Of a DNA stretch of 51,432 bases, positions 28,605 to 41,952 are shown in pieces. Every line of letters starts with the position of its first letter. The first letter of the stretch is position 1. The DNA comes from Gloeocapsa sp. DLM2.Bin57 (GTDB taxonomy: Bacteria; Cyanobacteriota; Cyanobacteriia; Cyanobacteriales; Gloeocapsaceae). The DNA is taken from the NCBI GenBank assembly GCA_007693955.1, contig RECR01000079.1:1-51432 (forward strand), given 5' to 3'. The translations under genes and the position numbers were made by a program. Under the pieces are notes generated by a model. The model was not told the DNA's origin. It saw only the letters and a list, made by a program, of their open reading frames with translations, and did not search any database.

Positions 28605-30011
28605 ATGAAAATTATCGAACACACATCTGAAAAACTTGTACTTAAAGAGTATGGAAATGTCTCTATTACTTATTTTTTAATGTTCATAAATGCTTTTATA
28701 GTACCATTTCCATTCTTCTTTATTATTTTTCCTGTTGCTTCTTTTATTAGGTCTTGGACTTCAGGAGTAGTAACCACAATACTATTATCTTTTTTGACTA
28801 TTCTTTATCTGATATTTATAGTATATGCCAACCTTTGGTGTATTAATAAATACTTTCAAACAGTTATACATTTCGATAAAAATAAGAATATCTTGCAAAT
28901 ATTTATAATTAATGAATTCAAAAAAACACAGAGAATAGAGAAAGAATTTTTCCTTGAGCAAATTCAGGAAGTTTTGATAGAACCTGAAAAAGATAGTGCT
29001 GGAGATGAAACTTATTATCTCTACCTAATTTTACCTGATGGAACAAGAACAGAAATAGACTCTTCTTCAGATGAAGAACAAGTAGAAAAAATTGCTAAAA
29101 CTTTAACTGATTTCTTGAGAATAGAATTAAGAAAAAATGGCTTAGTAGAAAAAAAGAAAACATTTAGAGAAGGAAAAAAAACATTCATAGAAATAACCGA
29201 ACATACATCCAGAAAACTTGTATTTAGAGAAAAAAGTTTCTCATTCCCACCTGTTGTGTTTCTGGTTATACACACAATTGTATCTATTTTAGTATTGTTG
29301 TTAATAATCATGCTTTGGCGCTCAGGAACAGAAACCATAACCTGTCAAAAACTTAACCCAGAACGAGTTGACTGTACTGTAGAATATTCTAGACTCATGG
29401 GTCTTATTTCAACTCAACCAAGACTGATTACAGAAGTTCAAAATGCCAGAGTTGCCAGAACAAATCTTAGCTCAGGTGAGAATTTTTATCATGTTATTTA
29501 TTTATCAGGAAGTCAAGGTGATTATCCACTAGAAAGTTATCACTTCCTAACAAACGCTAACAAGTTAAATCACGAGTTAAATGATTTTATTCATAATTCT
29601 TTTCGTCAGGAAAAACTACTCTTAATTGGTAATGATAATTTTGCCACTAGTGTCTTAAAATTGTTAATAGTTTTTCTCCTAATTTTCTCCTGTATAGATT
29701 TTTTGTTCATTAAGCATTGGTTGTTTAAAAAGTTTTTCATTTTAGATAAAAATAAGAAGATGTTTCAAGTAGCTATTATTAATTCTTTAACGCAAAAACA
29801 AAAAGTATGTCAAGAATTTTTTCTTGTTCAACTAGCGGTTGTCATGGAACGTGAAGAATATAGTGATGGCAATAAAAGTTATACATCTTTTCTGGTTTTA
29901 CCTGATGGGACAAAAAAAGAGATAAATTACTCTACATCTGAACTAGAAGTAGAAAAAATGGCTAAAACCTTAACACATTTTTTGGGAATAGAATTAAGAA
30001 AAAATTACTAA
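28605..30011 (+). CDS. tandem membrane-protein family, two-unit copy
   Basis: The 468-residue protein contains two units of the same family as its upstream neighbour. Unit 1 (about residues 1-180) opens IIEHTSEKLVLKEYG and ends LTDFLRIELRKNG but lacks the Cys-rich loop and the GSQG motif; its two spans are close together. A short linker follows, then unit 2 (about 196-468) opens ITEHTSRKLVFREK and keeps the Cys loop (ETITCQKL, DCTVEYSRLMGLISTQPR), GSQGDY, span 2 and the end LGIELRKNY. The protein thus came from duplication plus loss of the loop in unit 1. Four membrane spans are expected. The function is unknown. It starts 13 bases after the first gene and its end overlaps the convergent sspA gene by 18 bases. 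Confidence 0.78.
   Translation: MKIIEHTSEKLVLKEYGNVSITYFLMFINAFIVPFPFFFIIFPVASFIRSWTSGVVTTILLSFLTILYLIFIVYANLWCINKYFQTVIHFDKNKNILQIFIINEFKKTQRIEKEFFLEQIQEVLIEPEKDSAGDETYYLYLILPDGTRTEIDSSSDEEQVEKIAKTLTDFLRIELRKNGLVEKKKTFREGKKTFIEITEHTSRKLVFREKSFSFPPVVFLVIHTIVSILVLLLIIMLWRSGTETITCQKLNPERVDCTVEYSRLMGLISTQPRLITEVQNARVARTNLSSGENFYHVIYLSGSQGDYPLESYHFLTNANKLNHELNDFIHNSFRQEKLLLIGNDNFATSVLKLLIVFLLIFSCIDFLFIKHWLFKKFFILDKNKKMFQVAIINSLTQKQKVCQEFFLVQLAVVMEREEYSDGNKSYTSFLVLPDGTKKEINYSTSELEVEKMAKTLTHFLGIELRKNY
29982..30011 (+). repeat. 30-bp exact direct repeat, copy 2
   Basis: This is the second copy of the 30-bp sequence at 28562-28591, again ending exactly at the stop. Part of it (29994-30011) also overlaps the end of sspA on the other strand, so the repeat provides the last sspA codons. 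Confidence 0.9.
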
Positions 30012-31148
30012 TTTAATTGCTCTCTCAAGAATTATACTTGCTTGGTGGATCTCCTCCTCAGTGGTAAACTTGCCAATACCAATGCGTAAAGCGCCATCGA
30101 TAACTGCTTCAGGTAATCTCATTGCTCGTAAAACATGGGAAGGACTCGGGACACCTGATGTACAAGCAGCGCCCGTAGAAATAGCTAATTGAGAACGAAT
30201 TCGCGCAATAACTGCACTATTAGGAATATTTGGTACAGAAATATGCAGATTTCCTGCGAGACGATGGTTAGTGTCACCATTGACCACTAACTCAGGAATA
30301 TTACTTTGTAAGTAAGCTTGTAACCTATCCCGCTTAGAGGCGATCGCCCTCTCATCCTCCTCCATTTCTAATTGACGTAAGCGACAAGCTTCCCCTAAAC
30401 CCACAATACCAGGAACATTGAGAGTACCCGATCGCTTCCCCTGTTGATGACCCCCACCATAAATAATCGGTTCGAGACTATAACCTTTTTTCACCACTAA
30501 TGCGCCAATTCCTTTAGGACCATAAAATTTATGAGCAGAAATACTTAAATAAGTTATCCCCCAATCGCGAAAATTAAGAGGAATTTTACCTACTGCTTGG
30601 GAAGCATCACAGAGAAAAGGAATATGATATTTTTGGGCAATTTGACTGATAGTGGCGATCGGGTAAATATTGCCAATTTCGTTGTGAGCAGCCATAACAC
30701 AAAGTAGATCAAGACCTTGTTGACAAACAGTCTCCAGGTGTTTTAAATCTATTCTCCCTAATTGATCTACTTTCAGATAAATAAGTTCAGCTAGTCCTTT
30801 TTTTTGCAACATTACACAGGTATCTATTACCGCTTTATGTTCTAAAGGAGAAAGAGCAATACGGGATAGTTTTTGAGGAGATTTGCTCCTGATTGTACCC
30901 TGGATAGCTAAATTAAGACTTTCAGTTGCACCATCGGTAAAGATAATCTCTTTCGGTGAAGCGTTGATTAAATCAGCTATATACCCACGAGCAATTTTAA
31001 CCGCTTTTTCGGCTTCATCACCATAGGTATGATCAATACTGCTAGCATTACCAAAAGCAGTAGTTAGGTAATAGAGCATTAATTGAGCGATTCTCGGGTC
31101 AACTGGAGTAGTTGAATGATAATCAAGATAGATAGGATTAGTTGTCAT
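29994..31148 (-). CDS. sspA: cysteine desulfurase (SspA of the Ssp system)
   Basis: The 384-residue PLP enzyme takes sulfur from cysteine as a persulfide. It shows PLP-contacting H104 (SPLEH), D181 (LCDASQ), the Schiff-base lysine K207 (SAHKFYGPKG), and the catalytic C329 in STGAACTSGVPSPSH. It belongs to the IscS/NifS group. Its ATG overlaps the stop of the PLD-type gene as ATGA, and it ends the Ssp operon, so I assign it as SspA, the sulfur donor to SspD. IscS paralogues for Fe-S cluster building look alike, so a double role is possible; the operon position is the argument. Its last 18 bases overlap the convergent membrane-protein gene. Confidence 0.85.
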   Translation of the reverse strand: MTTNPIYLDYHSTTPVDPRIAQLMLYYLTTAFGNASSIDHTYGDEAEKAVKIARGYIADLINASPKEIIFTDGATESLNLAIQGTIRSKSPQKLSRIALSPLEHKAVIDTCVMLQKKGLAELIYLKVDQLGRIDLKHLETVCQQGLDLLCVMAAHNEIGNIYPIATISQIAQKYHIPFLCDASQAVGKIPLNFRDWGITYLSISAHKFYGPKGIGALVVKKGYSLEPIIYGGGHQQGKRSGTLNVPGIVGLGEACRLRQLEMEEDERAIASKRDRLQAYLQSNIPELVVNGDTNHRLAGNLHISVPNIPNSAVIARIRSQLAISTGAACTSGVPSPSHVLRAMRLPEAVIDGALRIGIGKFTTEEEIHQASIILERAIKLVIFS

Positions 31149-32077
31149 ATGCGATAGAAAATTTCAGAGTGATTAGGAATAGAAACACCATAGCGATCGG
31201 GCAAATAATATAGTAACCAACGCATTAAGGTTTGCCAGTTTCTTTGAGGGTTAAAATCAGGCAAATTTTGACAAGGAAGAGAAGCCAATAAATTACAAAT
31301 AGCCCCAAATCTTTGTGGAGTTTTGACAAAAACATCTAGTTGCTGAATAATTGGTTTTTGCAATAAAAGTGCTCCAATATAATCTTTAAACGCTGTTTTC
31401 GAGAGACCAGAAATAATAGCCAGAGAACTTAAATCCCTTTCTGCAGCTTCACGAGCAATGGTAGTTAAATTATCCCAATCTCCACAATAAGCTAGATAAA
31501 GTTCTTCAGGATTTCTCAGTTTAGGTAGCCAAGCTTCTGAAGGAATAGTAGAAATTGTTGACTCAATAACTAACTGATTTACAGCTAAAGGAATAGTCAG
31601 GTTTATGTCTTTTAATTTAACTATCATTTCTTGAAAAGAATCAAACCAATCCTCAGTCACTTCTAGAGCACCTGTAAATAATTCCTGTTCAAAGTCTTGT
31701 AAATAAGGCTCATTAGTGGACAATTGAACCAGCAGTTCTAAATTAGCTAAATTAGCTAAACCTAGTCCTTTTGCAGTTAAATTAGCTGAACCCACTAAAC
31801 ATCGCTGATCAAAACTATAATATTTAGCGTGTAAATCACTTTTGAGCCACAAAGAAGCAGTGGGGTAAGCTTGAATTACTTGCCATATTTCTAAGTCACA
31901 AACTCCTGTTAAGATATCTTCAGGTAGCCATCTTGTTACACAGTCAATCTTGATTCCTGGATTGAGATAACTAAAGATTTGTTTTAAGACAGATACTTTA
32001 ATAAAAGGAGCAGCGAGAATAACTTTTCTTTGGGCATTTTTACTTAAATTTTCGATTTTTTGCCACAGTAAACTCAT
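31145..32077 (-). CDS. sspH: PLD-type nuclease of the Ssp system (SspH by order)
   Basis: The 310-residue protein has one phospholipase-D-type HKD motif, H83-A-K85-YYSF-D90, with the downstream VGSANLTAKGLG (S97, N99) that completes it. A second HKD motif is not seen, so it would act as a dimer. Proteins of this type cut DNA in several restriction systems. It lies two bases after the Hsp90-like gene and overlaps sspA as ATGA. In the known sspBCD-sspFGH cassette the last three genes form the restriction module that damages unmodified DNA; the letter H is given by gene order and needs checking. Confidence 0.75.
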   Translation of the reverse strand: MSLLWQKIENLSKNAQRKVILAAPFIKVSVLKQIFSYLNPGIKIDCVTRWLPEDILTGVCDLEIWQVIQAYPTASLWLKSDLHAKYYSFDQRCLVGSANLTAKGLGLANLANLELLVQLSTNEPYLQDFEQELFTGALEVTEDWFDSFQEMIVKLKDINLTIPLAVNQLVIESTISTIPSEAWLPKLRNPEELYLAYCGDWDNLTTIAREAAERDLSSLAIISGLSKTAFKDYIGALLLQKPIIQQLDVFVKTPQRFGAICNLLASLPCQNLPDFNPQRNWQTLMRWLLYYLPDRYGVSIPNHSEIFYRI

Positions 32078-32079
32078 AC

Positions 32080-33903
32080 CTATGCTTTATTTTCTAAAAA
32101 CCTTCTAGCAATTCTTCCCCAATCAATTCGGGTTTCTTGAACTTTATTTTTACGTTCGCCATCTGGTTGTTCATCTTCGTATCTTGCCCAAGCCATTAAT
32201 AATAATTCTAACCCATCTAAAGCATTAACTAATCGAGAACGCAAGGTTTCTAAATCATCTGTTTCTACATCTTTTTCTAAAAGATCTACTAAATTGTCAT
32301 AAGCAGGATGATCGGTATTTAACGTAATAAGGATTACCCCACCTCTTGGTTTAACAGAGAAAAAAGCTGGACTGTCAAGATACCCTTTGGCAAATTGATA
32401 TTTTAAGCCATTTTCTACTGTAGTTGCTGCTAATAACTCCGCTTGTTTTTCACTGATTCCCTCTTCTAGTAAAGTTTCTTTAATTACTTGTTTGCGTTCT
32501 TCTTGAGGTAAGTTTTCATCTTGATCACTTTTACCTTGATAACCTTCTGATTTACGTTCTTTCGTAACGCTTGTAGCTATTTTTTGCGGTTTATAGGGAT
32601 CATGGCGTTTTTCACCGCTACGAGTTCCTTTAGTTTGTGCTTTTAATAAGCCACGAATTATCCTTAATTGACTATTAATTTTATGGGCTATTTCTAGCAG
32701 AGGTTCTTTGGGATCTTCATTCTGTTGTAACTCTTCTTTAAGTTTACTAAAACTCTGAGCATCATCTGATAAAGACTTAATATCTGTCTGCAAAATCTCG
32801 GTAAAATTTCGTGCAGATTGTTTATTATTAGTAACTCCGAAAAGATCATCAAGACTTGGAGGAAATTCTACTTCAACCCCCCACCATCTTTCTGTTGGTT
32901 CATAACCATTAGTTACTCCTGTATCAAGTTCTAATTCTCTACCTGCACGCACAATAGAAATACCAATATTTTTCTTAGCGTGTTTTCCATAAGAGGTACT
33001 ACCTGGATTAGAACCTGATTCAGTTTGACGCGCTTCTTCTTTAGCATAGGAAAAACGCACTTTAACCTCATGTTGTTTACCTTTAAAGTTAACAGCAAAA
33101 GTCGCTTCATAACAAGTATCACCCTCCCAAGGTTGGAACATCGCTTGATTATCAAAAGGAGGAGGACAAGAGGTTTTTTCCATTAAATAACCAGGATCAT
33201 TAGGTAGGGCATTTTTTTCGTAAATTATCTTATTTACATCGTCTAAATCAAAGGCTACCATCCGAATATTGACTTGATTATTATTGATAAATTTACGATA
33301 CATTCTCCCGATTAAAAGTTCAGAATTATCGATAATTGCTTTGCCTGTTCGCCATAGACAACGATCTATTTGTGACCAGACTATTAATGTGCCAGTTTGA
33401 CCAAAATGATTACCAACTCGATACCAGATATTAGGAATTGGTTTATAAATAGGTTCAGGAACTTCGCTCATTTGTTGCCTATTAATTTCATCTAAATCAA
33501 GGTAAGTATAGAGAGCATTTTCTACCCCATTTTGCCATGACCAAACGTTTATCCGTTGACATTGAGAAATAGAAGAAGAAGGTAAACCCATACCAAAACG
33601 TCCAATACCTGTATGTTTACTTTCCTCTAAATAAGTTCCGTTGCCAAATTGAAGAGCAAGGCGTAAAATTTTAGCATCCATACCACAACCATTATCTAAA
33701 ACAGCGATTTGGTCAATTCGAGGACGCTTTCTTTGTTCAATCTGTTGTTTCTTTTCTCCACAGAGTAATTCTACTTGAGATGCTCCGGCTTGAATAGCGT
33801 TATCGATCAATTCTGCTAAAGCGTAAGCCGCATTTTTATAGCCATTATCACGCATCGCTTGGATTACTAGATGAGGAGGGACGATATTATGAAAGTTAGT
33901 CAT
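32080..33903 (-). CDS. sspG: Hsp90/GHKL-type ATPase of the Ssp system (SspG by order)
   Basis: The 607-residue protein begins with a GHKL ATPase domain: N-box ELIDNAIQAG at 31-40, G1 box LDNGCGMD at 69-76 and G2 GRFGMGLPSSS at 101-111. A long middle region follows, with a charged linker about residues 370-450 and a C-terminal part with KGYLDSPAFFSVKPRGGVILITLN, resembling the non-ATPase part of other defence GHKL proteins. It is not a chaperone Hsp90, since the middle and dimer domains differ. GGAG lies nine bases before the ATG. It sits between the helicase gene (47-base gap) and the PLD gene (2-base gap). The letter G rests on order. Confidence 0.78.
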   Translation of the reverse strand: MTNFHNIVPPHLVIQAMRDNGYKNAAYALAELIDNAIQAGASQVELLCGEKKQQIEQRKRPRIDQIAVLDNGCGMDAKILRLALQFGNGTYLEESKHTGIGRFGMGLPSSSISQCQRINVWSWQNGVENALYTYLDLDEINRQQMSEVPEPIYKPIPNIWYRVGNHFGQTGTLIVWSQIDRCLWRTGKAIIDNSELLIGRMYRKFINNNQVNIRMVAFDLDDVNKIIYEKNALPNDPGYLMEKTSCPPPFDNQAMFQPWEGDTCYEATFAVNFKGKQHEVKVRFSYAKEEARQTESGSNPGSTSYGKHAKKNIGISIVRAGRELELDTGVTNGYEPTERWWGVEVEFPPSLDDLFGVTNNKQSARNFTEILQTDIKSLSDDAQSFSKLKEELQQNEDPKEPLLEIAHKINSQLRIIRGLLKAQTKGTRSGEKRHDPYKPQKIATSVTKERKSEGYQGKSDQDENLPQEERKQVIKETLLEEGISEKQAELLAATTVENGLKYQFAKGYLDSPAFFSVKPRGGVILITLNTDHPAYDNLVDLLEKDVETDDLETLRSRLVNALDGLELLLMAWARYEDEQPDGERKNKVQETRIDWGRIARRFLENKA

Positions 33904-33950
33904 TGAGTTAGTCTCCTAAATAAGTTGAAAATTGTTTAATTAGTTAAATA

Positions 33951-35555
33951 TCACCAAACATCTTCCCAATTGTGAAAAGCCTCTGCTACTGAACTAAAAC
34001 CTGGTAATTGAGGGTCAATAACCGTAACAATTTCAGCTGTAGCGTTTCCTCCTGCTTTGACACCTCGAATCGCCCTCCCTACCATCTGACTGTAGAGTAC
34101 CAGGGATTTAGTAGGACGCGCGATAATAGCAGCACTAGTTTTAGGTGCATCAAAGCCTGTAGTTAAAACACCATAGTTACACAAGATTTTGGGTTGTTTA
34201 GTTTCGTCTTTAAAGCTATTAATTAGCTGTTCTCTTTCTGGTTTGGGGGTATTTGCAGTTAGACAATTAGCGTCAAATCCTCTCCACCGTAAAATTGAAC
34301 TGATCAGATGGGCGTGTTCAACAGAAATAGTAAAAACGATGATTCGTTGATGATATTGGGCTAATTTTTCTACTGTCTGAATAATGCTGAGGTTGCGTTG
34401 TTCATCTTCTGCTAAGGAATTAAGAATAGATGGAGGGATGTCTAATGCTGTCTTAATTTTATTTAAGTCTCGTGGACTAAGTTTGATACCTGTTGTAGAT
34501 AATAAGGGACGATAATTAACTTTAGCTAAATATTGTTGGTCAACTAGATAATCGATGGGGTTTGGGTATCCTTCAATCTCTAAAGTAACTTTTTGTTTAG
34601 CGAAGAATTTAGCTAATTCTGCATCTTGATCAATATCTACCCAACTGCGTCCTGGAGTAGCGGTTAATCCTAATAAGCCTGTGTTTTCATAGGGGATAAC
34701 TAAAGCATCGAGTACTAGTTTATAAGTTTGAGCGAGCGCTTGATGGGCTTCATCGATGACAACTAATGAACAACTTCTCCCTAGTTGATTGATAAAATTA
34801 ATACTTTTTTTAAGAGCGTTATAAACTTTAGTTAATCCTGCTACAATTAGACCATCTTGGGCTTGTTCTAAGTCTAAATTATAGCTACTCCAAAAACGAT
34901 AAGTAGAAATAGTTCGATTGCCTAAAAAACTCCAGGCTTTTTGAAATTCTGTGACTGCTTGTTCACATAGTTCCTCACTATATGCTAACCAAATTACTAG
35001 GGTTGGTTCATTATTTCTAAGGTGATCTGCTATGATATTCATGGCGGTACGAGTTTTTCCTGCACCTGTAGGTAAATGAAGTAAAACACGACGAGGAAAT
35101 TTACTTAAATAGTTTTGAACTTTTTTAGCTGCTTGTCTTTGATGAGTAAATAAAGCATAGTTAGGAGTATTTTCTTGGGTTGATGGTATTGTTATGGTAT
35201 TTTTTTCTTGAGGATAATTAGCTATCTCAAAAAAGTTTAATAAGTATTTTTTGCTTTCTGATTTATCCTTAATTGTCAGTTTTTTTAAAGCTAGATAGTC
35301 ATTTTTAGCTTGAGGTGCATTTAGAAGAACAGTAAGTATTTTTCCTTGTTCAGGAGTGATTAAATCAAACAGTAAGTCCCGCTTTTTTTTAGACAGTAAA
35401 AGTTGTGCGGGAGTATAAAGAGTTAATAAAATTTCTCTTAGTTTACTAGGGTTTAAATCAGGTTCTAAAAGTTTCAATAGTTTAAAAGTTGCATTCCCTA
35501 ATAATTGCTGTAATGTCTTTTCATCTGCTTTCAGCAGTAAATCATTAAAGTTCAA
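33951..35555 (-). CDS. sspF: DEAH-box superfamily 2 helicase of the Ssp system (SspF by order)
   Basis: The 534-residue protein has a helical N-terminal domain (1-135), then SF2 helicase motifs: Q-region THQRQAAKKVQ, Walker A LPTGAGKTRT (K167), DEAH at 268-271, TAT of motif III near 298-300, and the C-terminal motif VI VGRAIRG. It would move on DNA and feed nuclease partners. The start is TTG at 35555, decided by a strong AAGGAG six bases upstream; there is no better ATG nearby. It begins 11 bases after the sspD stop. The letter F follows from the order sspBCD-sspFGH. Confidence 0.8.
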   Translation of the reverse strand: MNFNDLLLKADEKTLQQLLGNATFKLLKLLEPDLNPSKLREILLTLYTPAQLLLSKKKRDLLFDLITPEQGKILTVLLNAPQAKNDYLALKKLTIKDKSESKKYLLNFFEIANYPQEKNTITIPSTQENTPNYALFTHQRQAAKKVQNYLSKFPRRVLLHLPTGAGKTRTAMNIIADHLRNNEPTLVIWLAYSEELCEQAVTEFQKAWSFLGNRTISTYRFWSSYNLDLEQAQDGLIVAGLTKVYNALKKSINFINQLGRSCSLVVIDEAHQALAQTYKLVLDALVIPYENTGLLGLTATPGRSWVDIDQDAELAKFFAKQKVTLEIEGYPNPIDYLVDQQYLAKVNYRPLLSTTGIKLSPRDLNKIKTALDIPPSILNSLAEDEQRNLSIIQTVEKLAQYHQRIIVFTISVEHAHLISSILRWRGFDANCLTANTPKPEREQLINSFKDETKQPKILCNYGVLTTGFDAPKTSAAIIARPTKSLVLYSQMVGRAIRGVKAGGNATAEIVTVIDPQLPGFSSVAEAFHNWEDVW

Positions 35556-35566
35556 TTAATACTCCT

Positions 35567-36367
35567 TTACAAATGACAGATTAAACAGGGTAATTCCTCA
35601 TCTTCTGTTTCTAATACTTGTTCTAATGCTTCTGCTAAAGGTCGATTGGGTGTGGCTTTTTGTTCACGTTGCATCGCTTTTTCATGGTTAGCGATAATTT
35701 CTTCTTTTCTTTGCAAAAGTTCTAGTAAGGTTTCCCCTTCTGTCCAAGTATAGGTTCTCCCGTCTTTGTGATTTGATTCATATTCAACCGCTTGGGCGAA
35801 TAAGTCGGGGTGTTCTTGGGCTAACATCACCCATTCATACTTGCGTTGAAAGAAGCAGAAATAACAGCCTGAACGACTCCTCCAGCGATAGTAATCGGGT
35901 AAACCAATGCCACTATCTTCGAGTAAGCGAATAATATCGGCTTTAACTAATCCTCTTTCTTTAAAGGGAAATACTGGTTTAATGTTGGGTTTGGTGGAAA
36001 TATACCCTTCTCGATTTTCATCAGCGCGAATACCAATATAACTAATGGCTTCATCTTCTCCTACAAAATCTTCTAGGGGTTTGATTTTCATTTTGACTGT
36101 ACACCAGCGCATCTTAGGAGATGGTAATAAACCATCATGAATGGCTAACCAATGATCAAAACCTCTTTCTGCACTTAAATAGTGAATTTTGATACCTAAT
36201 CTAGCTTTGAGACGATCCAGAAATTCATATGTCTCTGGTAATTCTTTATGAGTGTCACAAAAAAAATATTCCATCTCGGGAATTTCTTTATGGAGTAGAA
36301 TAGCTAAGGCTGCGCTATCCTTCCCACCTGAAATACCTAGTAAATGTCTGACTTTTTGCTTTGGCAT
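35567..36367 (-). CDS. sspD: PAPS-reductase family sulfur transferase SspD
   Basis: The 266-residue protein is an ATP-pyrophosphatase of the PAPS reductase/DndC type: PP-loop GISGGKDSAALA (residues 11-22), FFCDTHKELPETY, and the Cys set RWCTVKMKIKP plus GCYFC that probably bind a [4Fe-4S] cluster, with a C-terminal CLICHL. In the Ssp system it activates DNA and passes sulfur from SspA onto the backbone. I choose the ATG at 36367 because family members start just before the PP-loop; a TTG at 36421 would add 18 residues and has no better ribosome site. It lies 332 bases after the Rpn pseudogene, so it may depend on its own promoter. Confidence 0.87.
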   Translation of the reverse strand: MPKQKVRHLLGISGGKDSAALAILLHKEIPEMEYFFCDTHKELPETYEFLDRLKARLGIKIHYLSAERGFDHWLAIHDGLLPSPKMRWCTVKMKIKPLEDFVGEDEAISYIGIRADENREGYISTKPNIKPVFPFKERGLVKADIIRLLEDSGIGLPDYYRWRSRSGCYFCFFQRKYEWVMLAQEHPDLFAQAVEYESNHKDGRTYTWTEGETLLELLQRKEEIIANHEKAMQREQKATPNRPLAEALEQVLETEDEELPCLICHL

Positions 36368-36489
36368 TGAAAATAATTGTTTTTCACTTATAACTGTATT
36401 ATTCCCGAAAAAGAGAACCAATTAACAGTTTTACCAAAAAAATTTAGAAAATTTCATATACCCTACTTTTTAGCTGAATTAAATAACTA

Positions 36490-36625
36490 AGGGTGTGACA
36501 GGACGATCAATTTCTCAAGGGATTATCAGGGCTGTACTCTGGTTTCCTCAACGCCCAAACTAAATATAAGCGAGCAACATACTCGCACTATAAGTATAAA
36601 TACTGAAAAAAATCCCCGACACCCT
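36490..36625. mobile_element. MITE-like 136-bp inverted-repeat element (putative)
   Basis: AGGGTGT at 36490-36496 is matched by inverted ACACCCT at 36619-36625, with imperfect extension inward (GACAGG versus CGGGGA). Inside is a hairpin GCGAG/CTCGC and no open reading frame. The position between a decayed Rpn gene and sspD, and the TA next to the left end, suggest a MITE. No clear target duplication was found, and the perfect arm is only seven bases, so confidence is low. Confidence 0.3.
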
Positions 36626-36699
36626 ACCTCAACCAGCAACTTTTGCCTTCAGATACAAGATCTAAGTTAACCTCAGAAGACCAAGTTTTTTTGGGCTGA

Positions 36700-37546
36700 T
36701 TAATTTTGCTTCAACCAATCAACTAAATCCTCTTGAGTGTTAAAATCTAACAAAGCTTCTCCGAGACTTTCTAATTTTTCTACACTAAGACTATTAATTT
36801 GTGTGGTTAACTCTTCAGAAATTTCCCCTAGACGTTTTTTTAGTAATTTGAGAATTAGGTTAGCCGCTTCTTGTTGTAACCCTTGTTGTAACCCTTGTTG
36901 TAAACCCTTAGCTTCGCCGATCGCTTCTATTTCTTGATAAATTACTGATTCTTTCATAATCTCTTCCTTCAATAATCTCTTTATTGTCATTGTATCTAAA
37001 ACCAAACCTGCAATAATTGCTGTGGATGCTGCTAAATTATTTCTTTCTCTAGTATCTGTTATGGTTTCAATTCTTTTAGCTACCGTCTCCAATACCTGTT
37101 CAGGATTTTTTCCCCCTGATAAAACCGCAAAAGGTAGTAATCCAGGGGAGTTTAATAAATCTGTTGTTGGTATTTCCCATAGACGAATCACATTATACTG
37201 ATGTTGCATTTTCAGGTAATTGAAAGTATCTTTCTTGACTAATTCCGAGTTAGTCTGACGCAGATAGATTACTACCTGATAAATCCGTTTTTGTGGAAAA
37301 AGACGATAAATCCTCAAGAAGTAGTCAGCCATAGGAAAGGGAATATTATCACTAGCTGAGGTTTGAAATTCAATGTGGAGTATAATATCTTCCGATTGTA
37401 AAAAGATTAAACTATCGGCGCGAATTGGTTCTACATTAAGTTCAGCTTTGTTGAATTTCTGTCAGAGATATAGATTCACCTATCAACCATTGGGCTAAAT
37501 CCCTACTAAAGTTTTTAGCCAGGAATTTACAGATATCGTCATACAT
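36700..37546 (-). pseudogene. frameshifted Rpn-family nuclease (DUF4351)
   Basis: The gene starts at ATG 37546 with MYDDICKFLAKNFSRDLAQW, typical of Rpn (PD-(D/E)XK-like, transposase-associated) proteins, but the frame ends at TGA 37444-37442 after ISLTEIQQS. The family sequence continues in the next frame: ELNVEPIRADSLIFLQSED, LHIEFQTSASDNIPF, MADYFLRIYRLFPQK, NSPGLLPFAVLSGGK and a C-terminal DUF4351 with three tandem GLQQ repeats (EAKGLQQGLQQGLQQE). A single-base indel close to 37445-37462 explains the change. In the shifted frame, the catalytic-type IRAD and EFQ blocks are intact. It sits between sspC and sspD on the same strand. Proteins of this family promote recombination, so it may have come in as an insertion. 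It is probably inactive. Confidence 0.8.
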
Positions 37547-37583
37547 TTAGATTGGGAATGAGTGGGGTTTAGGTTTAATAAAT

Positions 37584-40500
37584 TCAATTCCTTTGAGACT
37601 CTTTGTCTTGTTTTGCTGACTGATTATTTAAGATCCTTTCGGTTAACCCTGCTAATACTCCTTGGCGGATTTGTTCATTATCGGGCAAGATATTTAAAAT
37701 TTGCTCAACATATTCTTCGATTGTATCTCGATTCGTATTATCAACCCAAACCAGACGATGAATTTCTTCTCCATCAGGATTAGTAACAGTGATTCGCTTA
37801 CTATTAAATCCAACATTTACATTGGTTAAATTATTTGTTTCATCTTGCAATGCTTCTATATTCTTAAATCGGCGCGCTAAATCTGCTAACTTAATCTCAA
37901 AAGCGGTTACATTTTCATCTGTCCATGATTCAGGGGGTTTATCTGCTATTACCATGAGTAAAGCTTCTAACCATTCGCTATCAGATTTATCCTCATCCAG
38001 GGCAACTTGAACAAAACTTCTTAAATTACGTTCTATACATTTTCCTGCTAAATATTTTGCTCTAAATCGTAAATCTTCCCTTAACTGTGTTTCCTTACTT
38101 CCTACCCCAAAAGCATCATACAATAAGCTTTGAGAGTTGCTTAATAACTTTTCGTAAGCGGTATAAATTTCTCGTAAGGCTTTAGTTAATCTGCTACGGA
38201 GAGTTTTAGCAATTTCTTGATCATGATGATCTTCTCTAGCAATTGGGGCTAAATTACAAGCAAGAGGAAGCTGAGTAAAGATTAATTCATCGGGTTCAAT
38301 AGTTTGTTGTAAGGCTTTGAGTACCGCTAATGCTTCCTTGCTTAATTCCTGAGTTTGTCTAGTGTAAGCAGGAAGCTTTTTAACAAACTGATAAAGAGGA
38401 GTTACCACGGTTAATAGGGTTGCATTGCGCAATTTTCCTGTTTTTTTCAGGTTAGGGTTACGTAAAATAGACTCTAATTCTTTAAAAACTGCTGAACGTA
38501 AACCGACAACTTCAAAATATTTGACCGCAAAACGAGAAGGATCTTTTACCAGTAACTCAAAATGTTCTACTCCTAGCACAGGAATAAATGTCCCGTCTTG
38601 ATAAACGCCAAGATCATCGATATGATCAAGAACTACTGCTGCAATTAAAATAGGAATTGCCCCTTGTTTAATACCATAAGGAGGTTGTGCGAGTAAATCA
38701 GAGATTTTATCTAAAGTTTGGGGTTTATCAACTGCATTGGTACAAAAATCATCGATCGCTTGCCAAAATGAATTAATTCCTGATGAAGGTTCCGGAGAAT
38801 GGATACCCCAAGAGTTAAGCGAAACTTGACGATGAATACCCGTATCTGCTAAAAGTGAATAATAGATACTAACTTCAGGTCCATAACCTGATAAACCTAA
38901 CCTTTCCTTTTCGGGATGTTCAATCATCGCTGTGATTAATTCTCTTCTTGCTTTTGTACCTTGAGAGGTTAATTCACGGCGATTTATCAACTCATTCCAG
39001 ATAATGGGTGTTTGGTGATAAACTTGGTCACAGACATGAGATAAAGTTAAGTTAAACTCAGCGATCGCTTTGAAGGTATATTGTTTTCCTTGTACCCAAC
39101 TAGGGTTAGGATTCAGGGAAAAATCAAAAGCTTGAGTTAAGATATCATCTAGCAATTGTTCTGCTTCTGTGACTCGATAGCGTACCTCTTTTCTAGCTAC
39201 TCCGTCTGTTTGCAACTCAGGGTAATGAGACTGAATCTTCTTTAAAACCGCATATTCAAGAGTGCGAATGCGTAGTAAATCTAACTTATCCCCAATCACT
39301 AATAAAAACGGTTTACCATCAGCTGTATTCACGGGAACATGATCAGGATTTTGTTCACTCAACCAATAACCGATTAAACCATCACTTTCTGGACTATTTA
39401 ACTGCAACTGGTTTAAGTTTTGACTATGATCTAGATAACGTCGTTCAAAGTAGCGTAATGTACCTGTTTTATAGCTATGACGTTGAGCAATTAAAGGATT
39501 AAGAGGACGTAAACTGGTTAATAATTCCACTAAAGATCCCCTTGCTTGGGCGATTTCTGTACTAACCGCGCTATCAACGTTAAAATCAGATCCTTGCCAG
39601 ATTCTCAGTTCGTCTAACTGTCTAAAATGGGTTATAATGCCTTTTGTGAGTAAATCATCAATTACAATACTCCAATACTCCCGTTGTTGGTAATCTGTGG
39701 GACTATCACACATGGCTAAGGTTACCAATTCACGGGTTGCCCGATTTGCACCAGTAGTGGTGATTAAGTTTAAAATACCAATAACCTTTAAAACTCGTAA
39801 GCTATCAGGTTCTAAACTTTTAGAATCGGTGATTAAATCTTGGATTTCTACCCATCGCTGTAAATTAGGACGATTTGCTAACCCTACTCCCACTGCTTCA
39901 ATAAAATAGTCATAGACTCTATCTAGTTTAAGGGTAGGGAAAGGTTCATGATCAATGGTGGTTTCAGTGAGAAAGTTTTTAAAACTAAAAGGTTCACTAC
40001 TGGTAAGAAATGTAAACAATGAGCGATCGTTTTGGGCGAAACGCTGACACAGAGTAGGTAAAGCTAAAGCGGAAACAGGATGTAAAGGGTAAACCTTGAA
40101 TAATATTTCTTGAGTTATTTCTTCTCCTTTCAGCACATTTTTTAAGCTATTAAACCATTCTCCGGCGGTATTATGAATCGCGCATTGAAAGCCTTCAGCT
40201 TGGGTTTGATCAATCCCTTGTCCGATTAGTCGCATCATCGCTGAAGTTGACTCAGTAAAAGGGATATCTTCAAAGCGACCTTGTATTTTTGCCCATTCGT
40301 TACGCTGAATTGTCGCTAATCTTTGACTATAATCAGCAAAAGCTTGATGGAGGATTCCTAGTAGAAAAACGGGATAATCATGATCTTTGGGTAATTCTGA
40401 GATTTGTTGTAATAAATATAAATCTTCTGCGCCTTGGTTATAAGAAGCATATTCTAAACTTTTACCTAATTCATCAATAATTATAAAAATCCCTGCTTTT

Positions 40501-41069
40501 GAGGCTTTAGCGAGTTCTTGAATAACTCTGAGTACATCTTGACTAGGAATCTGATTACCTGTGCTGATTTTTTGAGTTAAATCTGTTAATTTAGTGATAA
40601 TGGGGATGTTTTGGCGTTCTGCCGCTGTCCAATAGCTTTCTATTCCCCTATTTAAAGCGCGAATGATGGTATGAGTGATTGACTCTCTTTCTGCTGTTGC
40701 TACTGCGCGCAGATAACCACCTGGGGGTAAACTTTCAGCTAAGGTTTGATAGTCTTGACTCGCTTCTCCTAATGTCTGCTTGGCAATTTCTAAAGCTTTG
40801 TTACGTAATTGATGATTCTCTTGAGTTAACAGAGATGCTAAAAATTGCGCTAAGGCTGATTTTCCTGTACCATAGACACTAGTAATCGTCCAAGCGCGGT
40901 TTCCTTCCTGAGATTGCAGACCATTAATGATGCGTTTTAGGGTATTTATAGCCCTTTCAGTGGGAATATACCCTTTTAGCATCTCTAAGCTATCGATATC
41001 GCGTTCTAGGTTGACAGAACGAGCATAACGACGGTTAATAGTAATGTATTGAGAGAGGTACTTACTCAT
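37584..41069 (-). CDS. sspC: SspC, large P-loop ATPase of the Ssp system
   Basis: The 1161-residue protein has Walker A GTGKS at 67-71 (SVYGTGKSALA) and Walker B IFIIIDELGKS with D199/E200, of the AAA/DEAD-type ATPase kind found in SspC. In the Ssp system SspC is an ATPase needed, together with SspB and SspD, for single-stranded phosphorothioate modification. The remaining 900 residues show no motif that I recognise but are rich in helix. The start lies eight bases before the sspB stop, so the two are translationally coupled. The Rpn pseudogene begins 37 bases after its stop. Confidence 0.82.
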   Translation of the reverse strand: MSKYLSQYITINRRYARSVNLERDIDSLEMLKGYIPTERAINTLKRIINGLQSQEGNRAWTITSVYGTGKSALAQFLASLLTQENHQLRNKALEIAKQTLGEASQDYQTLAESLPPGGYLRAVATAERESITHTIIRALNRGIESYWTAAERQNIPIITKLTDLTQKISTGNQIPSQDVLRVIQELAKASKAGIFIIIDELGKSLEYASYNQGAEDLYLLQQISELPKDHDYPVFLLGILHQAFADYSQRLATIQRNEWAKIQGRFEDIPFTESTSAMMRLIGQGIDQTQAEGFQCAIHNTAGEWFNSLKNVLKGEEITQEILFKVYPLHPVSALALPTLCQRFAQNDRSLFTFLTSSEPFSFKNFLTETTIDHEPFPTLKLDRVYDYFIEAVGVGLANRPNLQRWVEIQDLITDSKSLEPDSLRVLKVIGILNLITTTGANRATRELVTLAMCDSPTDYQQREYWSIVIDDLLTKGIITHFRQLDELRIWQGSDFNVDSAVSTEIAQARGSLVELLTSLRPLNPLIAQRHSYKTGTLRYFERRYLDHSQNLNQLQLNSPESDGLIGYWLSEQNPDHVPVNTADGKPFLLVIGDKLDLLRIRTLEYAVLKKIQSHYPELQTDGVARKEVRYRVTEAEQLLDDILTQAFDFSLNPNPSWVQGKQYTFKAIAEFNLTLSHVCDQVYHQTPIIWNELINRRELTSQGTKARRELITAMIEHPEKERLGLSGYGPEVSIYYSLLADTGIHRQVSLNSWGIHSPEPSSGINSFWQAIDDFCTNAVDKPQTLDKISDLLAQPPYGIKQGAIPILIAAVVLDHIDDLGVYQDGTFIPVLGVEHFELLVKDPSRFAVKYFEVVGLRSAVFKELESILRNPNLKKTGKLRNATLLTVVTPLYQFVKKLPAYTRQTQELSKEALAVLKALQQTIEPDELIFTQLPLACNLAPIAREDHHDQEIAKTLRSRLTKALREIYTAYEKLLSNSQSLLYDAFGVGSKETQLREDLRFRAKYLAGKCIERNLRSFVQVALDEDKSDSEWLEALLMVIADKPPESWTDENVTAFEIKLADLARRFKNIEALQDETNNLTNVNVGFNSKRITVTNPDGEEIHRLVWVDNTNRDTIEEYVEQILNILPDNEQIRQGVLAGLTERILNNQSAKQDKESQRN

Positions 41070-41952
41070 AATAATGATCGAGAATCTCCTTAGCTAATTG
41101 TAAAGGATCATCAGCTTGGAAGGATAGTTGAATTAAGCCTGCGGTATCTGATAAAGTAATTTTGGGATTATCTCTAGCTACCTTCTCAATGGCTGAACAT
41201 AATGCTTCTTCTGTTAGTTTAAATACTCTTCCCGGACTTCCGACATCATAGAGTAACCGAGAAATATTTAAGGTTTTAGCACCAGAATGATCAAAACTGG
41301 AATATTCTAAACAGGTAGCGACGATAATGTCTGCGGGTAAAGTGGTTTTTGCACCAATACGGAAAGTATAACGCTTTGCTTCTCCCGCGGTATGAATCAA
41401 CCCTAGTTGACTAAAAGGACAATCAATGGAATCCTCAATTAATCCTTTGCTTGAAGTTTGTTGAACATACATCCGCAAAATGCAGGAAATATCTTTATTT
41501 AGGGATGAATCTGCGGTTATTTTGCCTAAATTCTCTTGATATGACTTTAAACCTTGTGTTAAGTCTTGTTCGTAAAATTCTCCTCCTCGAAATAAATTAA
41601 AGGTATAATACCAAGCAGCAGCTTGACAAGTTGGTTTTAATAAATACCAGTGGAGTAACCATAAAGAAGCAGGATTTTCTAAATAGGGATCATAACCTTG
41701 ATCACTGAGTAATTGGTTACCAAATGGGGTGGGTTGATCATTTTCGAGAACTTTAAAAGCGTGACACCAATAACGGATGGATCTAACCATATTTTTACCT
41801 ACTCCTAACCGTAGGGGTGCATTATCAGCGTTAAAAATGCTGGAATCTTCACTAGCTAAGTCAAATCCTTTTTTTAACCATCCGTAACGAGTGTGGAAGG
41901 TTTCATGTCTAGCAAATATAGGGGTAACAGGTGTAATAGGAGTTACAGTCAC
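41062..41952 (-). CDS. sspB: SspB, DUF4007-type DNA nickase
   Basis: The 296-residue protein matches DUF4007: FARHETFHTRYGWLKKGFD (about 12-32) near the N-terminus, followed by LGVGKNMVRSIRYWCHAF (51-68) and NPASLWLLHWYLLKP. DUF4007 is the SspB family, whose members nick DNA in the Ssp system. The start is GTG at 41952 with no strong ribosome site; the first 11 residues, VTPITPVTPIF, are a Thr/Pro repeat and may not be part of the conserved domain. It is the first gene of the operon and follows the b-type cytochrome by 61 bases; the leader has no obvious promoter. Confidence 0.85.
   Translation of the reverse strand: MTVTPITPVTPIFARHETFHTRYGWLKKGFDLASEDSSIFNADNAPLRLGVGKNMVRSIRYWCHAFKVLENDQPTPFGNQLLSDQGYDPYLENPASLWLLHWYLLKPTCQAAAWYYTFNLFRGGEFYEQDLTQGLKSYQENLGKITADSSLNKDISCILRMYVQQTSSKGLIEDSIDCPFSQLGLIHTAGEAKRYTFRIGAKTTLPADIIVATCLEYSSFDHSGAKTLNISRLLYDVGSPGRVFKLTEEALCSAIEKVARDNPKITLSDTAGLIQLSFQADDPLQLAKEILDHYYE

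What the first reader, a model, noticed from the sequence alone, without database searches (positions are those of the whole stretch)
29994..41952. Single-stranded DNA phosphorothioation defence locus (Ssp: B-C-D-F-G-H-A) in a cyanobacterium
Seven minus-strand genes are a DUF4007 protein, a large P-loop ATPase, a PAPS-reductase type sulfur transferase, a DEAH helicase, a GHKL ATPase, a PLD nuclease and a cysteine desulfurase. The order fits the known sspBCD-sspFGH cassette (single-stranded phosphorothioate modification plus a restriction module that damages unmodified DNA), with sspA added at the end. Seen: domain motifs, order and overlaps. Known: the SspABCD-SspFGH system. Inferred: letter assignment of F, G and H by order, and that it is active.
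Basis: partly seen in the sequence, partly recalled or inferred. Interest (0 to 1): 0.85.

Follow-up and report, generated by a model that had tools for sequence, protein, structure and literature searches.

The report
Sulfur-DNA marking with an undescribed cutter
A cyanobacterium carries the known genes that put sulfur marks on its own DNA, but next to them sits not the known partner but a different, widely shared set of predicted DNA-attacking proteins (a DNA motor, a clamp-like ATPase and a nuclease), a candidate for one of the missing partners of this defence system.

Summary
The seven genes are real and at the stated coordinates; a broken eighth ORF lies between SspC and SspD. Four are the phosphorothioate (PT) modification set SspB, SspC, SspD, SspA. 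The other three are not SspFGH: PADLOC's SspF/G/H models strongly hit a true SspFGH but nothing here. They are a RadD-like SF2 helicase, a MORC/MutL-like GHKL ATPase and a single-HKD PLD nuclease resembling SauUSI's. Helicase and GHKL recur beside Ssp genes in ten phyla (nine with PLD): SspB, C or D lies in the fetched stretch of 64 of the 80 closest genome loci, 38 of 44 with full flanks, in either orientation. Three loci have a BrxP-type sulfurtransferase instead. One plasmid holds SspABCD, true SspFGH and a helicase-GHKL-endonuclease set together. SspB-C-D co-vary tightly, as do helicase-GHKL; the two halves only weakly. I propose an undescribed restriction partner of SspABCD. None of ten paper searches showed it, but paraMORC-helicase-nuclease systems are known since 2008 and that paper's figures could not be seen. 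Activity, and how it depends on PT, are untested.

The parts
41062..41952 (-). SspB (DUF4007), predicted DNA-recognition/nicking subunit of PT modification
   Evidence: PADLOC SspB E 1.1e-120; Pfam DUF4007 E 6.3e-101; PDB 6juf SspB E 1.7e-56, residues 12-296
37584..41069 (-). SspC, large P-loop ATPase (BrxC relative)
   Evidence: PADLOC SspC E 0, BrxC E 2.5e-140; G67, G69, K70, S71 each in 95% and D199, E200 in 97% of 63 sequences
36700..37332 (-). Rpn/DUF4351-family ORF in the SspC-SspD gap, probably a frameshifted remnant; not thought to be part of the system
   Evidence: Pfam DUF4351 E 1.3e-23; TIGR01784 matched only from position 86 and under its cut-off; family-like start lies in another frame by eye
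35567..36421 (-). SspD, ATP-pyrophosphatase/sulfurtransferase
   Evidence: PADLOC SspD E 2.4e-115; PAPS_reduct E 2.2e-15; S31, G32, G33, S36 and Cys107/186/189/279/282 in all 66 sequences of at least 230 aa
33951..35555 (-). RadD-like SF2 (DEAH) helicase/translocase, first gene of the restriction trio
   Evidence: ResIII E 3.3e-23; RadD model E 2.2e-39, under its cut-off; alignment profile hits PDB RadD 6jde E 1.3e-39; GxGKT, DEAH and QxxGR intact in 79 of the 80 homologues of at least 450 aa; 12 shorter ORFs not counted
32080..33903 (-). MORC/MutL-like GHKL ATPase (paraMORC type), second gene of the trio
   Evidence: HATPase_c_3 E 1.4e-21; profile hits MORC2 E 5.3e-8; AF2 model pLDDT 85.5, pTM 0.68; match to MORC3 Z 22.6, rmsd 3.9 A, 313 aligned; ATP-site motifs conserved
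31145..32077 (-). PLD-family nuclease with a single HxK(x)4D(x)6SxN-type motif, third gene of the trio
   Evidence: PLDc_2 E 1.8e-6; AF2 model pLDDT 93.2; residues 1-153 match SauUSI nuclease domain Z 17.1, rmsd 2.1 A, 141 aligned; H83, K85, S97, N99, N112, E114 in 65 of 65 sequences of at least 230 aa
29994..31148 (-). SspA/DndA-type cysteine desulfurase, sulfur donor
   Evidence: PADLOC DndA E 1.6e-136 and SspA E 2.4e-135; K207 and C329 in 50 of 50 sequences of at least 330 aa

Best explanation
The locus is a PT-based restriction-modification system: a standard SspABCD modification module joined to an undescribed restriction module (helicase, MORC-like GHKL ATPase, PLD nuclease). Shown here: gene content, intact active sites, wide linkage to PT-modification genes, variation of the nuclease, and two separately co-varying modules. 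Inferred modification route: SspA takes sulfur from cysteine, SspD activates and transfers it, and SspB with SspC picks and nicks the site so that one strand receives a PT. Inferred restriction route: the SF2 helicase tracks along duplex DNA, the GHKL ATPase closes on it as an ATP-dependent dimer clamp, and the complex licenses a PLD dimer to cut. PT marks on host DNA most likely block this step, so that unmarked phage or plasmid DNA is cut.
For: SspBCD/A identity. SspB, C or D above 30-70 bits lies in the fetched stretch of 64 of the 80 closest genome loci, 38 of 44 with at least 9 kb on both sides. In a draw of 291 cyanobacterial genomes, 15 match the GHKL protein and 10 of these over its full length; those 10 are all among the 30 genomes with an SspC match (hypergeometric 3e-11), 9 of 10 within about 13 kb by the listed coordinates, the tenth on another contig. 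The other 5 (partial, 30-35% identity) have no SspC match. In Treponema L024, Clostridiales L102 and Anaerolineae L086 the trio pairs with SspB/SspC plus a BrxP-type sulfurtransferase, so the common factor is PT chemistry. Nuclease variation: GmrSD protein and no PLD beside a full-length helicase and GHKL (L062, L065, L127), a PADLOC 'Effector/Endonuclease' protein (L022), PLD fused to GHKL (L080). Loci with SspBCD have a PLD, HNH or GmrSD gene in 37 of 38, loci without in 1 of 6. Mantel r 0.93 SspB-SspC, 0.88 helicase-GHKL, 0.36 SspC-GHKL. The PLD fold is closest to the restriction nuclease SauUSI.
Against: No experiment shows defence or PT in any of these strains. The 80 loci were picked from 316 by GHKL similarity and many are related, so the hypergeometric, Fisher and Mantel values are inflated. 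16 of 80 genome loci show no SspB/C/D; ten of these have short flanks, but six have full flanks, and 5 of those 6 genomes have no SspC match at E 1e-10: helicase-GHKL can exist without PT genes. 20 of 30 cyanobacterial SspC genomes lack a full-length GHKL match. The weak cross-correlations are still above shuffles (p at most 0.005), so the halves are not fully independent. The HNH variant is doubtful as a nuclease swap: in 9 of its 10 loci only helicase residues from about 178-193 on are found, i.e. without the Walker A region. Two distant plasmid relatives (24-26% identity, L025, L026) have neither trio nor Ssp genes. The protective direction rests mainly on the nuclease/SspBCD co-occurrence, and L080 keeps a fused PLD without SspC.
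Confidence: 0.7

Rival explanations
1. PT-activated version: as with SspE or PbeABCD, the trio is silent without PT and is switched on by PT-marked host DNA.
For: SspE needs CpsCA PT (PMC8092258) and PbeABCD needs PT to act (PMC6459918, passages); PbeA also combines PLD and helicase domains, and the helicase's best PADLOC hit is PbeA, over the helicase part.
Against: Full-flank loci lacking SspBCD mostly lack a separate nuclease gene too (5 of 6, one of these with a fused PLD), which fits a nuclease that is harmful without PT better than one silent without PT. These loci are few and related.
Confidence: 0.35
2. The trio is a known SspFGH under another guise.
For: Three genes linked to sspBCD, as in the sspBCD-sspFGH cassette.
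Against: PADLOC SspF/G/H models hit true SspFGH strongly and the window trio not at all; both sets coexist in one locus; an SspH model finds nothing in the window's genome.
Confidence: 0.02
3. The trio is an independent defence unit (paraMORC type) that merely shares a defence island with SspABCD.
For: GHKL + SF2 helicase + nuclease units were described, with methylases, in 2008 (PMC2292703); weak correlation of trio and Ssp distances; helicase-GHKL pairs without PT genes exist.
Against: Linkage to PT genes in 38 of 44 full-flank loci, and in ten phyla over all loci, including BrxP-type PT genes, with operon-like packing in the window. Among 110 of 142 unlabelled neighbouring ORFs of 200-900 aa in the 64 Ssp loci, the only families matched by more than three members are HNH_4 (10), GmrSD_N (8), Methyltransf_23 (8) and HTH_3 (8); no DNA-methylase family is among the 25 shown of 140. 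One plasmid locus (L021) does have an annotated N-6 DNA methylase beyond an IS3 gene.
Confidence: 0.2

Closest known systems
SspABCD-SspFGH (Vibrio anguillarum FF-93, PMC8092258)
   Same: SspBCD modification core with a cysteine desulfurase; three-gene linked restriction module
   Different: Restriction genes unrelated by profile: helicase/GHKL/PLD instead of Walker-A SspF, SspG and FtsK-like SspH
DndCDEA-PbeABCD (haloarchaea, PMC6459918, passages)
   Same: PT system whose restriction part combines an SF2 helicase and a PLD domain
   Different: PbeA fuses both and pairs with SMC-like PbeC and Dnd genes; here helicase and PLD are separate and pair with a GHKL ATPase and Ssp genes
paraMORC restriction-modification operons (Iyer 2008, PMC2292703)
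   Same: GHKL+S5 ATPase beside an SF2 helicase and a nuclease, HKD nucleases included
   Different: Described with DNA methylases; the text has no 'phosphorothio', 'PAPS' or 'desulfurase'. By eye the window protein misses the strict MORC motif at one position (E323). Figures were not seen; legends name Anabaena variabilis and Nitrococcus mobilis, both of which carry the trio beside Ssp genes here (L018, L130)
SauUSI and CglI/NgoAVII
   Same: PLD nuclease coupled to an SF2 helicase-like ATPase (PMC7913695, passages); PLD fold match Z 17.1 to SauUSI and 12.2 to NgoAVII R-protein
   Different: Those carry target-recognition domains; here a GHKL ATPase is added and PT genes are linked
BREX type 4
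   Same: Shares SspB/DUF4007, BrxC/SspC and a PAPS-reductase sulfurtransferase (PMC12839542, passages)
   Different: No PglZ or BrxL hit among the eight window proteins scanned; PglZ/BrxL not tested in the BrxP-type loci

Membership tests
SspABCD PT modification | SspB, SspC and SspD genes in one cluster | tested here: met
   PADLOC E 1.1e-120, 0, 2.4e-115; cluster order
SspABCD PT modification | Cysteine desulfurase SspA or IscS supplying sulfur | tested here: met
   SspA/DndA E about 1e-135; K207 and C329 conserved in 50 of 50; SspA versus DndA label not separable
SspABCD PT modification | Single-stranded PT in genomic DNA | not testable with these tools
   Needs LC-MS or PT mapping
SspFGH restriction module | SspF, SspG and SspH homologues | tested here: not met
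   No SspF/G/H hit at E 1e-3 for GHKL and PLD, none in the 25 of 28 rows shown for the helicase, while the same models hit true SspFGH; no SspH match in the genome
SspE restriction | SspE (DUF262-DUF1524) beside SspBCD | tested here: not met
   No GmrSD/DUF262 hit among the operon proteins; the one GmrSD_N protein elsewhere in the genome scores PADLOC Orf5 710 bits against SspE 60 bits
PbeABCD | PbeA with PLD and helicase in one protein, SMC-like PbeC | tested here: not met
   PbeA hits are to the helicase protein only; PLD is a separate gene; no SMC-like hit among the eight proteins in Pfam
MZA | MzaB with the other Mza proteins | tested here: not met
   Only residues 11-137 of the GHKL protein match PADLOC MzaB; NCBIfam 75 bits against a cut-off of 850; no other Mza name among the rows shown
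paraMORC restriction systems | GHKL plus S5 ATPase module with SF2 helicase and nuclease neighbours | tested here: met
   MORC3, SMCHD1 and MutL matches over about residues 1-430 (Hsp90 and topoisomerase VI also at Z 18-19); helicase and PLD adjacent
paraMORC restriction systems | DNA methylase partner | tested here: not met
   No DNA methylase gene among the eight operon proteins scanned (one weak MTase_II row, 18 bits, belongs to SspD); PT genes take that place
DISARM | DrmA, DrmB and DrmC | tested here: not met
   Only a weak DrmC (PLD) hit, 21.4 bits against a cut-off of 133; no DrmA/DrmB among the rows shown

The most novel reading that the evidence does not exclude
A distinct class of PT restriction: a MORC-like clamp ATPase and a RadD-like translocase form a constant core that reads PT status and hands unmarked DNA to an exchangeable nuclease (PLD, GmrSD or other). 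It combines with Ssp-type or BrxP-type PT writers and accounts for a substantial share of the SspBCD loci reported as lacking a restriction partner.
Probability: 0.45. Interest if true: 0.85.

Novelty: new variant of a known kind. Interest (0 to 1): 0.7.

Why it matters
The SspFGH paper found neither SspFGH nor SspE beside 2,211 of 2,678 sspBCD loci and proposed either unknown partners or true orphans (PMC8092258). A conserved, phylum-spanning module with intact active sites is a concrete candidate for one of those partners. In the cyanobacterial sample its GHKL gene is in 10 of 30 SspC genomes; SspFGH-type genes showed in 3, plus one weakly, of the other 20. It would also link MORC-like ATPases, which in eukaryotes act in silencing of methylated DNA (abstracts listed), to PT marks. 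Trichormus variabilis ATCC 29413 carries the whole set on a plasmid, so it can be tested.

Tried and rejected
SspFGH reading: rejected. SspE, Pbe, MZA, DISARM readings: rejected by profile. Lipid-acting PLD: thought unlikely, because SauUSI stands about 3 Z above the rest; the next rows mix nucleases (Nuc, NucT, BfiI) with non-nucleases (FAM83B, phosphatidylserine synthase), so this is not proof. HNH as a clean nuclease swap: weakened on recheck. The HNH cluster has 10 loci; 9 have no PLD found (2 of these, L067 and L069, end at the contig edge) and their helicase ORFs are 138-369 aa long; L076 has a PLD but no helicase match. I lowered the novel case from 0.5 to 0.45 for this. Empty-site comparison with the same-genus genome G121: inconclusive, because matching flank pieces lie on different contigs; a second same-genus genome is 77% complete. 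Neither has the GHKL gene, which suggests an accessory locus but does not prove transfer. C-terminal parts of the PLD protein (after 154) and of the GHKL protein (after 430) were barely tested by the fold search; no claim made. Helicase-GHKL pairs without PT genes in Chloroflexi and Microcoleus are unexplained. DpdE/F, Cas3 and UvrB hits of the helicase were taken as generic SF2 similarity.

Search for print: ten PMC searches. Subscription papers and most preprints are not held, and figures are not; only 40 of 51 papers and only 20 of 63 were listed. The 2008 paraMORC figure may already draw part of this gene set. A description elsewhere is possible.

Dropped before counts: 236 of 316 GHKL relatives were not kept by the scan. 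Of 51 plasmid records with a match I opened 10: 8 have the helicase-GHKL pair with Ssp genes (Agrobacterium's Ssp genes seen), 2 distant ones have neither. Motif counts leave out ORFs under 450 (helicase), 540 (GHKL) and 230 aa (PLD, SspD), and L025/L026. The Mantel test used 47 dereplicated of 50 loci with all six genes. One search scanned 110 of 142 eligible ORFs.
Full report
What is there. The window is contig C79 of a 3.45-Mb genome. It is a cyanobacterium: contigs of genomes that the tool puts in the same order agree in length and match position with Geminocystis sp. NIES-3709 and Anabaena sp. 4-3 records. All seven genes in the finding exist as given, on the minus strand, with overlaps or gaps of a few to 47 bases, except for a 1.2-kb SspC-SspD gap. 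That gap holds an eighth ORF (36700-37332, Rpn/DUF4351), probably a frameshifted remnant.

Modification half. PADLOC gives SspB, SspC and SspD as best hits with E from 2.4e-115 to 0; the desulfurase scores SspA and DndA about equally. SspB matches the solved SspB 6juf over residues 12-296. SspD keeps its nucleotide loop and five cysteines invariant in 66 homologues, SspA its conserved C329 in 50 of 50. This half is a standard SspABCD set.

Restriction half is not SspFGH. I read parts 1-3 of 5 of the defining paper (PMC8092258): besides a Walker A motif in SspF and an FtsK/SpoIIIE-like end of SspH, its three genes showed no significant homology to annotated genes. PADLOC models for SspF, SspG and SspH scored a true set on an Agrobacterium tumefaciens plasmid at E 2.8e-237, 5.9e-219 and 0 and gave no hit to the window's GHKL and PLD proteins, nor in the 25 of 28 rows shown for the helicase. 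That plasmid carries SspABCD, true SspFGH and a helicase-GHKL-endonuclease set in one stretch, so the two are separate partners. In that copy the helicase has lost its DEAH and other motif residues.

What the trio is. The helicase is RadD-like: an alignment profile hits PDB 6jde at E 1.3e-39. The GHKL ATPase profile hits MORC2 at E 5.3e-8. Its model (pLDDT 85.5, pTM 0.68) matches MORC3 (Z 22.6, rmsd 3.9 A, 313 aligned), SMCHD1 (Z 21.8, rmsd 4.3 A, 338 aligned) and MutL (Z 19.3, rmsd 3.8 A, 301 aligned) over about residues 1-430; Hsp90 and topoisomerase VI also reach Z 18-19. The PLD protein's first 153 residues (model pLDDT 93.2) match the nuclease of SauUSI (Z 17.1, rmsd 2.1 A, 141 aligned), then Nuc (14.3), NucT (14.3), FAM83B (14.2), BfiI (13.6) and, lower, NgoAVII R-protein (12.2). 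Active-site residues are intact: 79 of 80 helicases of at least 450 aa; 90 of 96 GHKL proteins identical at 11 key positions, five more differing only at G72 and one degenerate second copy; PLD H83, K85, S97, N99, N112, E114 in 65 of 65, the motif aspartate in 50 of 65.

Distribution. A scan with the GHKL alignment found 316 relatives in genome contigs; the best 80 were kept. Annotated with profiles built from the window and plasmid loci L017-L024, 64 of 80 have SspB, SspC or SspD (above 50, 70 or 30 bits) in the fetched stretch, 77 the helicase and 55 a PLD; of the 44 with at least 9 kb on both sides, 38 have SspB/C/D. Of 5 contigs from the viral collection, 4 do. By record titles, loci combining Ssp genes with helicase and GHKL come from Cyanobacteriota, Armatimonadota, Pseudomonadota, Bacteroidota, Chloroflexota, Acidobacteriota, Bacillota, Actinomycetota, Myxococcota (one locus, L110, without PLD) and, on a plasmid, Spirochaetota; the phylum labels are mine from the names. 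In the 64 loci with SspC (60 genome, 4 viral), SspC lies upstream on the same strand in 41, downstream on the opposite strand in 18, otherwise in 5. Of 10 plasmid loci opened, 8 have helicase-GHKL with Ssp genes and 2 distant ones (24-26% identity) do not.

Cyanobacterial sample. Of 291 genomes of the phylum, 15 match the GHKL protein at E 1e-10; 10 of them over the full length. 30 match SspC at E 1e-30, some only in fragments. The 10 are a subset of the 30 (p 3e-11 if genomes were independent); 9 of 10 pairs are within about 13 kb on one contig by the listed coordinates, and the tenth lies on another contig. The 5 partial GHKL matches have no SspC match. In the other 20 SspC genomes my profiles (single-sequence for SspF/G/H) find SspFGH-type genes in L146, L154, L155 and weakly L163.

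Modularity. In 47 dereplicated loci with all six genes, distance matrices correlate strongly inside SspB-C-D (0.73-0.93) and for helicase-GHKL (0.88), but only 0.29-0.46 between the halves, still above shuffles (p at most 0.005). PLD follows helicase and GHKL only moderately (0.55, 0.42), hardly more than it follows the Ssp genes (0.36-0.46). The nuclease varies: L062, L065 and L127 carry a GmrSD protein and no PLD, L022 a protein matching a PADLOC 'Effector/Endonuclease' model over its first 96 residues, L080 a PLD domain fused to the GHKL protein, Planktothrix L017 a DUF2779 gene as well as PLD. A cluster of ten HNH_4 proteins, mostly Nostoc, looked like another swap, but in nine of these loci only the helicase from about residue 178 on is found, so the Walker A region is missing, and the tenth (L076) has PLD but no helicase match; they may be rearranged or decayed. 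DndB-like genes recur as accessories. In L024, L102 and L086 the sulfurtransferase is BrxP-type, so the trio follows PT chemistry and not one Ssp lineage.

Other neighbours. Of 142 unlabelled ORFs of 200-900 aa in the 64 Ssp loci I scanned the 110 longest with Pfam. Only HNH_4 (10 members), GmrSD_N (8), Methyltransf_23 (8) and HTH_3 (8) matched more than three; no DNA-methylase family is among the 25 shown of 140. Two Methyltransf_23-type proteins scanned earlier scored below cut-off; their role is unknown.

Exceptions. 16 genome loci show no SspB/C/D, ten of them on stretches with short flanks. Six have full flanks: three Anaerolineae/Chloroflexi (L101, L105, L131), Microcoleus L073, a Pleurocapsa MAG (L080) and Halobacillus L107. 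Five of these genomes have no SspC match at E 1e-10; Halobacillus has a distant one elsewhere. A PLD, HNH or GmrSD gene is present in 37 of 38 full-flank loci with SspBCD (31 PLD, 4 HNH, 2 GmrSD; L059 has none) and in 1 of 6 without (Fisher 3e-5); counting the PLD fused in L080 makes it 2 of 6. The loci are few and related, so this only leans toward a nuclease that needs PT protection.

Mechanism. Modification follows the published Ssp scheme. For restriction I infer a helicase that tracks on duplex DNA, a MORC/MutL-type ATP-gated dimer clamp, and a PLD dimer that cuts when PT is not sensed. Precedents: SauUSI couples a PLD nuclease dimer to an SF2 motor (PMC7913695, passages); paraMORCs sit with SF2 helicases and nucleases in restriction systems (PMC2292703, parts 1-2 of 4 and passages). 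The direction of PT dependence is the least certain step: SspFGH attacks unmarked DNA, while SspE and PbeABCD need PT.

Novelty. The parts are known kinds; the combination, as far as ten searches of held papers show, is not described. Passages found by the terms given in PMC10853773, PMC12839542, PMC12707154, PMC10952713, PMC8011034 and PMC12137116 do not describe it. A caution: figures are not held, and the 2008 paraMORC legends name Anabaena variabilis and Nitrococcus mobilis, which both carry this trio beside Ssp genes (L018, L130), so the helicase-GHKL-HKD part may have been drawn there; the text has no PT, PAPS or desulfurase. I file it as a new variant of PT-based restriction-modification that may answer part of the open question of the partnerless sspBCD loci.

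Noticed in passing
L142 (NZ_CP039925.1 344000-375500): One Agrobacterium plasmid locus holds SspABCD, true SspFGH and a helicase-GHKL-endonuclease set whose helicase has lost its DEAH motif.
   Followed up: partly
L097, L101, L105, L111, L131: Five Chloroflexi-type MAGs carry a helicase-GHKL pair between the same two conserved flanking ORFs (five-member clusters), with no nuclease or PT gene found; possibly a domesticated pair.
   Followed up: partly
L073, L075, L077, L079: Microcoleus-group loci have helicase-GHKL with no PLD or Ssp gene in the stretch; a 202-aa protein follows in L073 and L077.
   Followed up: no
L057, L060, L061, L063, L064, L066-L069: Nine cyanobacterial loci have an HNH_4 protein exactly where the first ~178 residues of the helicase are missing: a shared rearrangement or decay of the helicase.
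   Followed up: partly
L090, L093, L103, L106, L108, L110, L120, L122, L125 and others: A 13-member cluster of large proteins, some with a weak Methyltransf_23 match, recurs near Ssp-trio loci; unknown accessory.
   Followed up: no
window 36700-37332; L057, L060-L065, L067, L069: Rpn-family genes recur in or near the SspC-SspD gap of cyanobacterial Ssp loci, on the opposite strand in those nine, as if that gap were a landing site.
   Followed up: no
L137-L140 (IMG/VR contigs): Contigs filed as viral carry SspABCD together with helicase, GHKL and PLD, which suggests mobile carriage or misfiling.
   Followed up: no
L096 4030-12540: Rhodoferax MAG with two GHKL genes and two helicase genes around one PLD, beside SspC and SspD.
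   Followed up: no
L167 1477-3456 (G000 contig C37): The window's genome has a GmrSD-type protein elsewhere that scores highest with PADLOC Orf5, then HEC-06, far above SspE.
   Followed up: partly
L156, L157, L163: Divergent relatives in the phylum sample carry SspABC with a low-scoring sulfurtransferase; L156 and L157 have a helicase scoring only 30-35 bits, L163 low-scoring SspF/G-like genes.
   Followed up: no
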